This document shows, one piece after another, positions 11,547-57,219 of a DNA stretch of 61,540 nt. The position numbers and the translations under genes were made by a program. The first letter of the stretch is position 1. The number at the start of each line of letters is the position of its first letter. The stretch lies in NCBI GenBank assembly GCA_015711795.1, contig JACVJC010000013.1:1-61540 (forward strand), in the 5' to 3' direction. The notes beneath the pieces were generated by a model. It was not told where the DNA came from and ran no database searches. It saw nothing but the letters and a program-made list of their open reading frames with translations. Source of the DNA: Candidatus Geothermocultor quzhuomuensis. GTDB taxonomy: Bacteria > Actinomycetota > Aquicultoria > Geothermocultorales > Geothermocultoraceae.

Positions 11547-12316
11547 TGACTCAATCTTTCCTTTACTCTTTTTAAACCTTCTTTAGCAAGTTTAAAACCT
11601 TTATCTAGAGATAATGCTTTCTCATAATCTTTCATTGCCTCAAAGTATCTTTCCTTCTTTTCCAAGGTAAGACCCCGATAATAATAAGCTAAAGAATAGG
11701 CAGGGTCAAACTTTAAAGAAGTTTCAATATTTTTTAATGCTTCATTATAGTTTTTTTTGCCTAAATGAGCTCGACCTATGTAAAGATAAGTATCAGCACT
11801 AGAAGGATTGGTGAGTAAAGATTCTTTCAGTCTCTCAATTGCCTCATCGTACCTTTTCAGCTCAAGAAAAATTGCCCCAGAAAGAAAGCGAGCTTTTTCT
11901 AAGGCAATGTTTGATTGAGCTTCTTTTTGGGCTTCGGCATAAGCAATTTCTTTATTGCACCACTTTAAAGCTTCTTTGAAGTCACCTTTGTAAAAATTAG
12001 CATAAGCTAAATAAACCAAAGCCAGTGAATTTTTAGGGTCTACTTCGATAACTTTCTTAAACTCCCTTATAGATTGATTGAACTGACGGCGCTCCAAATA
12101 AAAAAGACCCTTTCTAATTATATCATTGGGGTCAGTTAGCTTTCCTTCATATTCCTCCTCTTCAGGAGGGATTAACTTTCTACTAGGCTGATTTAAGATA
12201 GTATAGCGGTCATAAAGATAATAGCTTAAAAAGAAAAGTGAAAAAACTAAGGTTAAAATACCCACTAGCTTAACAGAACGGTCTAGAAATGTTCCCCTCA
12301 AAAACCAGCGCATCAC
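11543..12316 (-). CDS. Membrane-anchored TPR protein
   Basis: This 257-residue protein has one membrane helix (residues 16-34) and about five TPR units from residue 65 to the end, for example FKKVIEVDPKNSLALVYLAYANFYKG and LLTNPSSADTYLYIGRAHLGKKNYNEALK. It is the first gene of the surface-polysaccharide operon and overlaps the NHL gene by 4 bp. TPRs in such operons usually organise protein assemblies. No catalytic motif is present. Confidence 0.8.
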   Translation of the reverse strand: MMRWFLRGTFLDRSVKLVGILTLVFSLFFLSYYLYDRYTILNQPSRKLIPPEEEEYEGKLTDPNDIIRKGLFYLERRQFNQSIREFKKVIEVDPKNSLALVYLAYANFYKGDFKEALKWCNKEIAYAEAQKEAQSNIALEKARFLSGAIFLELKRYDEAIERLKESLLTNPSSADTYLYIGRAHLGKKNYNEALKNIETSLKFDPAYSLAYYYRGLTLEKKERYFEAMKDYEKALSLDKGFKLAKEGLKRVKERLSQ

Positions 12317-42901: not shown

Positions 42902-43010
42902 ATCTTTAATTTTAAATGGTTAGTGAACTAAAGAAAATTTAAGGTAAGCCTAAAGATATTTCCCCCTCAATAAAAATTATTGTTAGTTCCATCTTTTAGG
43001 AGGTGAAAAA

Positions 43011-43379
43011 ATGATATCTGGTTCAGTAGGTTGGTTATGGGCTTTAGGTGTTTTTATCATTGCCTGTGTTGGCTTAATATTATCTTTTAATCTCTTTCGA
43101 GCAGGAAAAGAAGTTTCAAAGGAAAAAGTTGAAAAACTAGAGAAAAAGCCTCTACCAGTTCCTCCTCCGATAGAACCTTCAATCTCAACCCCTCGCTCTG
43201 AAGAAAAAACTTTTCCCGGTATCCCAGAACACGCAAAGCCAGTTTCACCTGATACCTTCCCTAAGAGAGAAGAAAAACCATCAGAAGGACCCACCACCCC
43301 TAAGGCTCCAGAAGGTTCTGAGGGAGGAGAAAGTCCTAAAACTCCTGAGGGTTCTGGAATAGGACCATTTGGAATGTAA
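43011..43379 (+). CDS. Single-helix membrane protein with Pro/Glu-rich tail
   Basis: The ATG follows AGGAGGTGAAAAA. The 122-residue product has one N-terminal helix (about 5-28) and then a disordered tail rich in Pro, Glu, Ser and Lys with repeated PEGSEGGESPKTPEGS. The layout resembles the soluble tail of the cytochrome b at 1733-2689. No family is recognised. It is 33 bp before the hexahaem cytochrome and probably forms a complex with it. Confidence 0.7.
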   Translation: MISGSVGWLWALGVFIIACVGLILSFNLFRAGKEVSKEKVEKLEKKPLPVPPPIEPSISTPRSEEKTFPGIPEHAKPVSPDTFPKREEKPSEGPTTPKAPEGSEGGESPKTPEGSGIGPFGM

Positions 43380-54274: not shown

Positions 54275-54308
54275 AAAAAAGGGTAGCTCTTGCGAGCTAC
54301 CCTTTTTT
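54275..54308. terminator. Strong bidirectional terminator
   Basis: GGGTAGCTC-TTGC-GAGCTACCC is flanked by A6 and T6, a 9-bp GC-rich stem with an ideal loop (54281-54302). It ends the minus-strand secreted protein gene and could stop plus-strand transcripts as well. Confidence 0.85.
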
Positions 54309-54331: not shown

Positions 54332-55276
54332 TCAGCGACTTTTTCTTGTTTTAGCGTAATAATACACCCGTGCCTCATCTGAGTCTTCGTCTTCACCACT
54401 TTTTGCAACAAGTTCAAAATAGTAATAGCCGCTTCTTCTAAAGATTTTTCTTAAGGACTTATGTTTTGTATTAATCATTACTCCTTTTCTTAGAAACTTA
54501 ACTCCTCCTCCGTGGACATCTTCATATTCTTTTCCATTAGGAGCAGTTATGTTTAAGACGATATCCTCAGGTTCAGGTTCGCAAAAATATGAAAGAGTTA
54601 TTCTTTCTCCTTTGTAAGCTGGTCTCGGGCGAACTCTAGTTATTCTTATTCTTATTTCGAGTTCTTCTTCCTCTTCTTCGTCCTCACCGATAGTCTCTTC
54701 CCCTTGGGAGTAATCAAGAGCTTCAATTTTATCCCACCAAAATGTTGCACTCCCAGGCCAAACACAAGTATGAAGTCGTATCTCAGTTCCTGTAGGATAA
54801 TCAGCATCAGCAGTCCAAATAACCTCGTCGACTCCGGCGCATTGGCTACCTTGCCCACCTGGTCTATTATGTAGCTTTTCGTTACCAGGGCCATAGCCCC
54901 CGACATACAAAGACCAGTTTGCAAAATTTCCTGTTTCTGTATGGGCAACCCTTACTTTTATTCTCTCCCCTCTTTTGATTGCTCTTATCGTATATTGCAC
55001 TAATGATACATCAGATGGAGCACCGCTTACCTCAACTTTAGCGCTGCCAGAATAATCACCGCTCCAGGAAATATTTCCAGGAGTTGCAAAGCAAGCTACC
55101 GGATTAATAACTATCCAGTTTGACAGACCAGAGGTAAAATTCCAGTTGTTAACAATTGCATTAGTATCATCAGGAGGTTCAAGAGCAAAAGAGATTATTT
55201 CAGTAGAGGGCAAAGTGCCAAGCAACAACATTACAAGAAGAGAGATTATCCCGATCTTAGTTAGTATCTTTTTCAC
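54332..55276 (-). CDS. Secreted two-domain protein (carbohydrate-binding-like plus Ig-like)
   Basis: The GTG at 55276 is the last unit of an 8-bp repeat. The 314-residue product has a signal peptide (KKILTKIGIISLLVMLLLGTLP...FALEPP). Residues about 40-195 look like a carbohydrate-binding-module-like sandwich (NWNFTSGLSNWIVINP, SATFWWDKIEALDYS). An acidic linker (IGEDEEEEEELE, about 201-213) leads to an Ig-like domain of about 90 residues. No enzyme motif is seen. Its role would be outside the cell, binding glycans or surface protein. Translation depends on the unusual repeat between its ribosome site and start. Confidence 0.75.
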   Translation of the reverse strand: MKKILTKIGIISLLVMLLLGTLPSTEIISFALEPPDDTNAIVNNWNFTSGLSNWIVINPVACFATPGNISWSGDYSGSAKVEVSGAPSDVSLVQYTIRAIKRGERIKVRVAHTETGNFANWSLYVGGYGPGNEKLHNRPGGQGSQCAGVDEVIWTADADYPTGTEIRLHTCVWPGSATFWWDKIEALDYSQGEETIGEDEEEEEELEIRIRITRVRPRPAYKGERITLSYFCEPEPEDIVLNITAPNGKEYEDVHGGGVKFLRKGVMINTKHKSLRKIFRRSGYYYFELVAKSGEDEDSDEARVYYYAKTRKSR

Positions 55277-55364
55277 TTTTTCACTTTTTCACTTTTTCAC
55301 TTTTTCACTTTTTCACTTTTTCACTTTCTCACTTTCTCACTTTCTCACTTTCTCACTTTCTCAC
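55269..55364 (-). repeat. 12-unit 8-bp tandem repeat between ribosome site and start codon
   Basis: On the minus strand there are five GTGAGAAA units followed by seven GTGAAAAA units, 96 bp in all. AAGGAGG lies immediately upstream (55371-55365). Each unit begins with GTG and each GTG opens GTG-AxA-AAG-TGA, whose TGA overlaps the next GTG as GTGA. The last unit reads GTG-AAA-AAG-ATA and opens the secreted protein. Copy number changes would alter the number of mini-ORFs and the distance to the ribosome site. Confidence 0.9.
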
Positions 55365-55371
55365 CTCCTTT

Positions 55372-56259
55372 CTAGACAGTTTGAGAGATTTATCTCAAGC
55401 AGTTAATTTTAAATTTTTTACCTCCCTCTCTTCACCTCCCCTTTTTTTATTAGAACTATGTATTTTTTCGGCTTACTTTCTTCAACCCTAAAGACCCAAA
55501 ATATCCTATTTTTAGTCCTAAAATGTCCCGATTCTAAAAATTTTTGTCCCACCATAATACATATAAACAAAAAAGTCAGCGCAAAATCTTTGTGAACTGG
55601 CTATTTATCCAATCTCTTTTTTGGAGTGGCACTCCTTTCAACCCCAATCTAGTAACTTATAAATGCCCTTCCGTATTCTTTTTTAAAATTACATCTTTAA
55701 GGTATACTTTTTTTTATTGTCAAGAGTTTTTTGGAAAAAATTTAAAAAGCAATTCTCAAAAACGCATAGAAACGTGAGAATTGTCAAATTCTGGGAATTT
55801 AGAAAAAATTACTACATCACCTGCCCTTGTACAACATTACCCCATTGTCACTTTCTCGGGAAAGTGACAATGAGATTGCTTCACTTTGTTCGTAATGACA
55901 CAAGAACAATGGTGGGCCTGTCAATTTGCCCATGCCTGCCCTTAAAATAAAATTCTAAATCCTAAGCACCAAATTCTAAACAAGCACAAAATCCAAATTA
56001 TCAAAATTCAAAAACCAGTGAGAAGTTAACAGTAAGTAGTTTATATTTTTTTAATTTTTTTCTGCTTTCTGCTCACTGCTTCCTACCCCCAAGCAGGCGG
56101 GTTTGCTAACTATTTTTTGAGAGTGAGTATAGTCGCGGATTCTGTCAAGTGTGGAGGGTGCAGACCCACAAAAAAGATTCTTCTTAGGCTAAAGATGACA
56201 TTTCTAATCTCATTTGTTATTCCTTTTCCACTTAACTACTTTGACCCCTTATTAAGAGT
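55372..56259. other. Gene-poor region with repeats
   Basis: No gene is supported in about 890 bp. It contains the palindromic element at 55843-55900, an inverted repeat CAATTCTCA/TGAGAATTG (55750-55783), repeat-like runs (55940-56020, TCTAAATCCTAAGCACCAAAT), and AGTAAGTAG/CTGCTTTCTGCTC sequence near 56030-56080. Confidence 0.5.
55843..55900. repeat. REP-like palindromic repeat with AGATTGCTTC-type tail
   Basis: CATTGTCACTTTCTC-GGGAAAGTGACAATG (55843-55872) is the second copy of the palindrome at 6374-6403. It is followed by GAGATTGCTTCACTTTGTTC and GTAATGAC, which resembles the GCAATCTC/CATTGCGAG type of repeats seen in many bacteria. Confidence 0.55.
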
Positions 56260-57192
56260 CTAGAGCTGGTAAATGTTTCCACCTTCATCAACTGCTTGGG
56301 CTTTTAAACATGCTGTCTTTTTGATAAACAGCATCCTTATTTTAACCAATAATTCTCCATTTTCATCATACTTCCTCACTTCAAAATAAGTCTTTTTGAA
56401 ATACTTATCCTTAGCTAAATTCAAAAGAAGATAAACATTCCCATCATCAATATGAATAAATGCTCAAAGTGCTTAAATAGTCTCTTGTTTTTATCTTAAC
56501 TTCTTTGATGACTTTTTGGTTCACTTTTAATCTTCAAATAGCTAAGATGGTCATTTTTCCACCCAGCTAGATAAGCAAACCCACCAGGTCCTATTCTTCC
56601 TTCTTTAACACTCGCCACTTGTTGAGCAGAAGGAAAGGCACGATTTGTTAAACCAATCTGGTATGTTCTTTGGTGAGCGTCAATCACAAAAACTCCTCCA
56701 TCCTTATCAAACTCAATATCAACAAGACCACTAATTTCATTGGAAATTGGAAAACTTTAGCTCCTTGAGGATCGTATTTTGTGACAGTGTTATAAGAAGA
56801 ACTAAAGAGATAAAAATTGCCTTCTTTATCAAGAGTGATAATTTCAGCTACTGGTGCCATAGCAAAACTGGAGATATATTCCCTTTTCCTCAGAAAATTT
56901 AAGAACTCTCCCATTAACAAAATCAGTGAGGTAAATTTCTCCTTGTGGACTGACTGTTAAGCCCTGAGGTCCCTTTTTCTCTGCTTCTTCGTTCAGCCCA
57001 AATTCGCCAGAACCATCGCCCCAAGAAGAAACAATCTCCTTTGAGGTGTAACTTTCCCTGCCGATAACTGCAAGCTCTTCCTTCTTTTTAAGTGATGGTT
57101 TTTTTCAGTTTGGTAATTCCTTGGTAGCCTCCAACAAGCAAAAGGAAAATAACAAAGAGAGACAACATCCCTAAAAAAATTTTCTTTGACAT
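56260..57192 (-). pseudogene. Decayed secreted beta-propeller gene
   Basis: ATG 57192 follows AAGGAGAAACGA and encodes MSKKIFLGMLSLFVILLLVG, a signal peptide that ends soon at a TAA. Fragments in several frames follow: a strand IITLDKEGNFYLFSSSYNTV TKYDPQGAKV and the piece PSAQQVASVKEGRIGPGGFAYLAG, and at the end LKAQAVDEGGNIYQL before TAG at 56262-56260. These are six-bladed propeller (NHL/6-blade) repeats. Multiple frameshifts and stops show the gene is dead. Confidence 0.7.
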
Positions 57193-57219
57193 TCGTTTCT
57201 CCTTCCTAAGGTAAATTGT

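What the first reader, a model, noticed from the sequence alone, without database searches (positions are those of the whole stretch)
55269..55371. Ladder of overlapping four-codon mini-ORFs between ribosome site and start codon
A perfect AAGGAGG is separated from the true GTG start of the secreted protein by 12 tandem 8-bp units (five GTGAGAAA, seven GTGAAAAA). Every unit is a GTG-codon mini-ORF (GTG-AxA-AAG-TGA) whose TGA overlaps the next GTG by GTGA. Because 8 is not a multiple of 3, all three frames meet a TGA, so ribosomes loading at the SD site must terminate and re-initiate stepwise to reach the gene. Repeat number would then set expression, a possible phase-variation switch unlike frame-switch or promoter-spacing designs. 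Sequence facts are direct; function is inferred.
Basis: partly seen in the sequence, partly recalled or inferred. Interest (0 to 1): 0.78.

Follow-up and report, generated by a model that had tools for sequence, protein, structure and literature searches.

The report
Octamer repeat displacing a ribosome site
In one uncultured bacterium an 8-letter DNA repeat has grown between the ribosome-loading site and the start codon of a gene for an exported protein, so that ribosomes meet a row of tiny start-stop frames before the gene, which could set how much protein is made; no relative or measurement yet shows that it does.

Summary
On the minus strand AAAGGAGG (55371-55364) is followed by 12 head-to-tail octamers, 5 GTGAGAAA then 7 GTGAAAAA; the twelfth is the GTG-AAA-AA of the ORF 55276-54332 (signal peptide, no known family). 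None is expected by chance, and it is the only such array in its genome. Collapsing it to one unit of each type restores an ordinary gene start, AAAGGAGGTGA-GAAA-GTG-AAA-AAG, with a 7-nt spacing normal in this genome. The simplest origin is slipped-strand expansion of the GTGA shared by an extended Shine-Dalgarno and the start. This puts 87 nt of unstructured RNA between SD and start, tiled by GTG-NNN-AAG-TGA mini-ORFs with 4-nt overlaps. The first GTG lies inside the SD, so a ribosome loading there would pass ten mini-ORFs. 'Must re-initiate' is too strong: weak initiation at the last GTGs, each with GUGA in SD register, is not excluded. Copy-number control would be graded, not a frame switch. 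No homologue, strain or read data bear on variation. GTGANNNN arrays are widespread elsewhere, mostly at gene ends or in hairpins; none examined ends in a credible start codon. Best filed as a new variant of a known kind: simple-sequence repeats in 5' leaders.

The parts
55364..55371 (-). Shine-Dalgarno AAAGGAGG, extended to AAAGGAGGTGA by the first repeat unit
   Evidence: Sequence; predicted duplex with a standard anti-SD tail -17.8 kcal/mol upstream of GTG 55356 (the 16S gene itself is missing from the assembly). GGAGG 4-9 nt before starts is the usual arrangement in sampled stretches of this genome.
55325..55364 (-). Five GTGAGAAA units (5' block); mini-ORFs GTG-AGA-AAG-TGA
55269..55324 (-). 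Seven GTGAAAAA units (3' block); the seventh (55276-55269) is the start of the gene
54332..55276 (-). GTG-start ORF, 314 aa, signal peptide MKKILTKIGIISLLVMLLLG, beta-rich body, acidic linker, Ig-like C-terminal domain
   Evidence: coding score 0.21 in frame against 0.06/-0.03 out of frame; no Pfam family even at E=10; no homologue in 99 relatives; AlphaFold without alignment, pLDDT 48, C-terminal domain about 70-87
54275..54308 (.). Perfect 15-bp hairpin with T/A tails, a candidate bidirectional terminator 23 nt past the stop codon
55372..55700 (-). Upstream leader/promoter region; promoter not located, no RNA family
   Evidence: No sigma-70-like hit at 55230-55950 on the minus strand; Rfam only sub-threshold noise elsewhere in the region

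Best explanation
The array is a slipped-strand expansion that began inside an ordinary ribosome-binding site. The ancestral start was probably AAAGGAGGTGA-GAAA-GTGAAAAAG: the GTGA ending the extended Shine-Dalgarno and the GTGA at the start codon form an 8-bp direct repeat, and slippage multiplied it to 12 units (inferred from sequence). This moves the SD 80 nt further from the start. Ribosomes loading at the SD would translate formyl-Met-Arg/Lys-Lys mini-ORFs and could pass on by termination-reinitiation at successive GTGA overlaps; a minority may initiate directly at the last GTGs, each carrying a weak in-register GUGA. The expected result is low, graded expression of the exported protein that falls with unit number and can change whenever the array slips: a translational rheostat, not an on/off frame switch. 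Shown: anatomy, register, uniqueness, lack of structure. Inferred: slippage origin, ribosome route, dependence on unit number. Not shown: variation or selection.
For: Array and register. Collapsing to 2 units gives a textbook RBS; GGAGG spacing 4-9 nt, including 7, is normal in 461 kb sampled from this genome. The unexpanded geometry exists in the same window: 43003 AGGAGGTGAAAAAATGA with an ORF at 43011; in the sample few starts (3 of 367) carry GTGA at -8 before an RTGA start, so the seed is present but uncommon. The two unit types form two pure blocks, as slippage produces. -17.8 kcal/mol pairing at GTG2 against about -4 at the last GTGs. Leader less structured than 199 of 200 shuffles. 4-nt overlaps couple efficiently while about 20 nt of spacing nearly abolishes coupling (PMC10666635; PMC6728339). 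The ORF has a signal peptide, coding bias and a candidate terminator.
Against: No homologue and no second genome of the same genus or family is held, so neither the ancestral state nor copy-number variation can be checked. Ten consecutive reinitiations would yield little unless each step is efficient (0.5^10 is about 0.001, 0.9^10 about 0.35; toy model). 16S rRNA is absent from the assembly, so the anti-SD is assumed. The neighbourhood contains a frameshifted gene remnant, so the locus may be under weak selection.
Confidence: 0.5

Rival explanations
1. Passive spacer: the expansion is neutral or mildly harmful slippage. The displaced SD is useless and the gene is translated weakly, if at all, by direct initiation at the last GTG(s) on an unstructured A-rich leader. 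Unit number hardly matters beyond the first few units.
For: Leader unstructured; each GTG has GUGA in SD register with about -4 kcal/mol pairing; no known family for the gene; degraded gene remnant next door.
Against: Coding bias, signal peptide and candidate terminator suggest a live gene; exact tiling by 4-nt overlaps makes some reinitiation hard to avoid for ribosomes loaded at the SD.
Confidence: 0.33
2. The array belongs to the widespread GTGANNNN octamer satellites, and the gene's start was recruited from its last unit, the SD-like AAGGAGG being a unit variant.
For: At least 115 GTDB loci match an extended GGAGGTGA-plus-octamer pattern; units are purine-rich around GTGA; such arrays occur in 5 of 35 other genomes of the class; (GTGAAAAA)6 stands alone in a viral contig, L171.
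Against: Those arrays lie at gene ends, between genes or in hairpins (inverted copy in 36 of 118 against 6 in control); none examined ends in a credible start codon. The window array has no inverted arm and is alone in its genome. The gene's own MKK start matches the unit exactly.
Confidence: 0.13
3. Minus-one slippage ladder: AAA-AAG followed by TGA could let ribosomes slip back one base per unit, reading (GTG AAA AAG)n straight into the gene and adding Val-Lys-Lys repeats to the signal peptide.
For: 8 nt = three codons minus one base, so one -1 slip per 3'-block unit keeps the frame open into the gene (sequence; A-AAA-AAG is a known slippery heptamer, own knowledge).
Against: Here the heptamer is G-AAA-AAG; the five 5' units (AGA AAG) are not slippery; every unit would need its own slip.
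Confidence: 0.04

Closest known systems
TAACTGA heptamer repeats of Beggiatoaceae, Cyanobacteria and Bacteroidetes (MacGregor 2015, PMC4679880)
   Same: Short tandem units with stop codons in all forward frames, no predicted RNA structure, in Beggiatoaceae mostly just upstream of start codons; translational role proposed.
   Different: 169 sets of 2-6 copies in one genome; units contain no start codon, so no mini-ORF ladder; usually no SD. Here a single 12-unit array fused to both SD and start.
Moraxella catarrhalis uspA2 (AGAT)n 5'-UTR repeat (as summarised in PMC4679880)
   Same: Tandem repeat between promoter and start of a surface-protein gene, copy number tuning expression without changing the frame.
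   Different: Tetranucleotide; experimentally shown with strain variation; not described there as an SD-start spacer of stop/start overlaps.
Synthetic SD-start spacer repeats (Egbert and Klavins 2012, cited in PMC3749727)
   Same: Repeat in the spacer between SD and start; spacer length tunes translation.
   Different: Engineered in E. coli; acts through SD-start distance. Paper not held; read only through the review.
Termination-reinitiation at overlapping gene pairs (Huber 2019, 2023; PMC6728339, PMC10666635)
   Same: 4-nt stop/start overlap as the coupling device.
   Different: One overlap between two genes; here eleven in series between 3-codon frames.
GTGANNNN octamer arrays found here in GTDB species
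   Same: Period 8 with GTGA in every unit.
   Different: Gene ends, intergenic, often with an inverted copy; no credible start codon in the array.

Membership tests
5'-leader simple sequence repeat controlling expression (uspA2-like) | Tandem repeat between promoter and start codon | tested here: inconclusive
   Array lies between SD and start; promoter and transcript start not located
5'-leader simple sequence repeat controlling expression (uspA2-like) | Copy number varies among strains or cells | not testable with these tools
   No strain, relative or reads; 99 relatives lack the gene
5'-leader simple sequence repeat controlling expression (uspA2-like) | Copy number changes expression | not testable with these tools
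   Needs reporters
Termination-reinitiation coupling | Stop and start overlap (-4 or -1 nt) | tested here: met
   GTGA at every one of 11 junctions
Termination-reinitiation coupling | Downstream translation depends on upstream translation | not testable with these tools
   Needs SD-mutant reporters
TAACTGA-type repeat family | Unit TAACTGA, period 7 | tested here: not met
   Period 8, GTGARAAA
GTGANNNN octamer satellites | Period-8 GTGA units | tested here: met
GTGANNNN octamer satellites | Usual placement: gene end, intergenic or hairpin with inverted arm | tested here: not met
   Abuts SD and start; no inverted copy within 400 nt

The most novel reading that the evidence does not exclude
A natural multi-step termination-reinitiation rheostat: ribosomes load at one strong SD and hand over through ten overlapping three-codon frames, so each added or lost octamer multiplies expression of a surface protein by a fixed factor without altering its reading frame, giving heritable graded variation.
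Probability: 0.22. Interest if true: 0.75.

Novelty: new variant of a known kind. Interest (0 to 1): 0.45.

Why it matters
If real, it would show that the usual SD-start geometry (extended SD ending in GTGA, start codon followed by A) is itself a seed for a slippage-prone octamer whose every copy is a self-contained stop/start overlap. That offers a graded way to vary translation by repeat number, and a simple construct series for measuring per-step reinitiation efficiency in bacteria.

Tried and rejected
Frame-switch phase variation: rejected, the array lies wholly before the second codon boundary of the gene's own start unit, and unit changes occur upstream of the start codon. Structured leader or riboswitch: rejected, no Rfam family and unusually low structure. 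Second SD inside the array: none strong; best pairing near the real start is about -4 kcal/mol. Alternative start at ATG 55231: would lose most of the signal peptide and has weak SD pairing. Recurrence: GTGARAAA triplets in 0 of 296 other genomes of the phylum; SD plus octamer ladder in 397 phylum genomes gave only this one and a gene-end match in L187; viral contigs gave arrays or chance matches with no clear slippage ladder feeding a start. Protein identity: no Pfam, no convincing PDB sequence match, low-confidence model with no fold hit at E<=0.001. Literature searches for repeats between SD and start with slipped-strand mispairing returned nothing.

Full report
OBSERVATION. The window reads on the minus strand ...CTAGAAAGGAGGTGAGAAAGTGAGAAA.... 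Twelve octamers run from 55364 to 55269: five GTGAGAAA, then seven GTGAAAAA; the twelfth is the first 8 nt of the ORF 55276-54332 (GTG AAA AAG ATA CTA). Tandem Repeats Finder gives 12.1 copies at 98% and the top score of the window. The three-unit pattern is absent from 100 shuffles and from the rest of the 1.76-Mb genome. In 461 kb examined with TRF (20 stretches plus the window) it is the only array of that length and purity with a unit under 10 bp.

LADDER. Units 1-11 each read GTG-NNN-AAG-TGA, and each TGA overlaps the next GTG as GTGA; frames cycle 0, 2, 1. The first GTG lies inside the SD, so the first usable start is at 55356, 7 nt after GGAGG, with -17.8 kcal/mol predicted pairing to a standard anti-SD. 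The real start at 55276 is 87 nt from GGAGG, with about -4 kcal/mol from pairing that includes its in-register GUGA. The 16S gene is missing from the assembly, so the anti-SD is an assumption, though strong SDs are common in this genome (182 of 367 sampled starts under a caller that favours SD). The leader is less structured than 199 of 200 shuffles.

THE GENE. The ORF has a clear signal peptide that requires the GTG at 55276, an in-frame coding score above the other frames, and a perfect 15-bp hairpin with T/A tails 23 nt past its stop. It matches no Pfam family, no PDB sequence convincingly and nothing in 99 relatives. An alignment-free AlphaFold model is poor apart from a beta-rich, Ig-like C-terminal part, and Foldseek found nothing at E<=0.001.

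ORIGIN. Removing ten units leaves AAAGGAGGTGAGAAAGTGAAAAAGATA, a normal start. The GTGA closing the extended SD and the GTGA opening the gene are 8 nt apart, a ready slippage seed. The seed geometry occurs unexpanded in the same window at 43003-43014, AGGAGGTGAAAAAATGA, and GTGA at -8 before an RTGA start in 3 of 367 sampled genes. A at the fourth coding base is enriched in nearly all bacterial genomes (PMC5850271), so RTGA at starts is common. Two pure blocks of unit types fit stepwise slippage. This origin is inference, since no relative carries the gene.

WIDER FAMILY. These are GTGANNNN arrays, purine-rich at positions 5-8, often with an inverted copy within 200 nt (36 of 118 against 6 in a reversed control), and frequently supplying the stop codon of the upstream ORF. 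Inspection of the cases with a long ORF starting close behind found no array whose last unit is a credible start codon. In the window's own class 5 of 35 other genomes hold octamer arrays, and the five inspected lie at gene ends or between genes. The SD-ladder pattern was seen in the window and in one other of 397 phylum genomes, the latter not at a gene start. The window array thus shares period and core with these satellites but not placement.

MECHANISM. Coupling by termination-reinitiation is strong at 4-nt overlaps and nearly lost at about 20 nt (PMC10666635; PMC6728339), and 15 nt of upstream coding sequence was enough. An inert 80-nt insert would therefore be expected to disconnect the SD from the gene, whereas this insert offers a 4-nt overlap every 8 nt. 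A toy model (arbitrary entry rates) shows the outcome depends on per-step efficiency: at 0.9 a 12-unit array keeps about 0.4 of the 2-unit output; at 0.5 the SD signal is lost and output sits on the floor set by direct initiation. Both routes predict reduced expression; only the first predicts continued dependence on unit number and on the SD. Unit changes never alter the gene's frame, so any variation is graded.

COMPARISON. The nearest natural cases are TAACTGA repeats just upstream of starts in Beggiatoaceae (PMC4679880) and the uspA2 AGAT leader repeat described there; the nearest engineered case is the SD-start spacer repeat (cited in PMC3749727). None is described there as a chain of stop/start overlaps. 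The array is a new variant of 5'-leader repeats; function remains untested.

Noticed in passing
L021-L135 (loci), L158, L163: GTGANNNN octamer arrays often begin at a gene's 3' end and supply its stop codon: about 33 arrays end the upstream same-strand ORF with one of their own first stops, in any of the three frames; a moaC-like gene in L158 is one example. I know of no description of this family.
   Followed up: partly
L030, L034, L035, L116 and others: Many of these arrays are accompanied by an inverted TCACNNNN array, forming long imperfect hairpins (36 of 118 against 6 in a reversed control).
   Followed up: partly
window 56250-57195 (-): Frameshifted remnant of an exported protein gene that reads as beta-propeller-like pieces in several frames; not mended.
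   Followed up: partly
window 55843-55872: Perfect 13-bp hairpin CATTGTCACTTTC/GAAAGTGACAATG within a stretch resembling a dispersed palindromic repeat.
   Followed up: no
window 43003-43014 (+): AGGAGGTGAAAAAATGA: an unexpanded SD/start with the same 8-nt GTGA/ATGA geometry.
   Followed up: yes
L171 (viral contig), minus strand 883-934: (GTGAAAAA)6 array roughly 80 nt upstream of a gene that has its own SD; same unit, no start-codon role.
   Followed up: partly
L175, L185, L186 (viral contigs): GGAGGACTTTTTATGATAC.ATGA...ATGAATCCATG recurs upstream of a related ORF; a run of ATGANNNN with non-identical units.
   Followed up: no
L151:12385-12457 and 11692-11773: Degenerate heptamer array around CTGTCTA in the same genome.
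   Followed up: no
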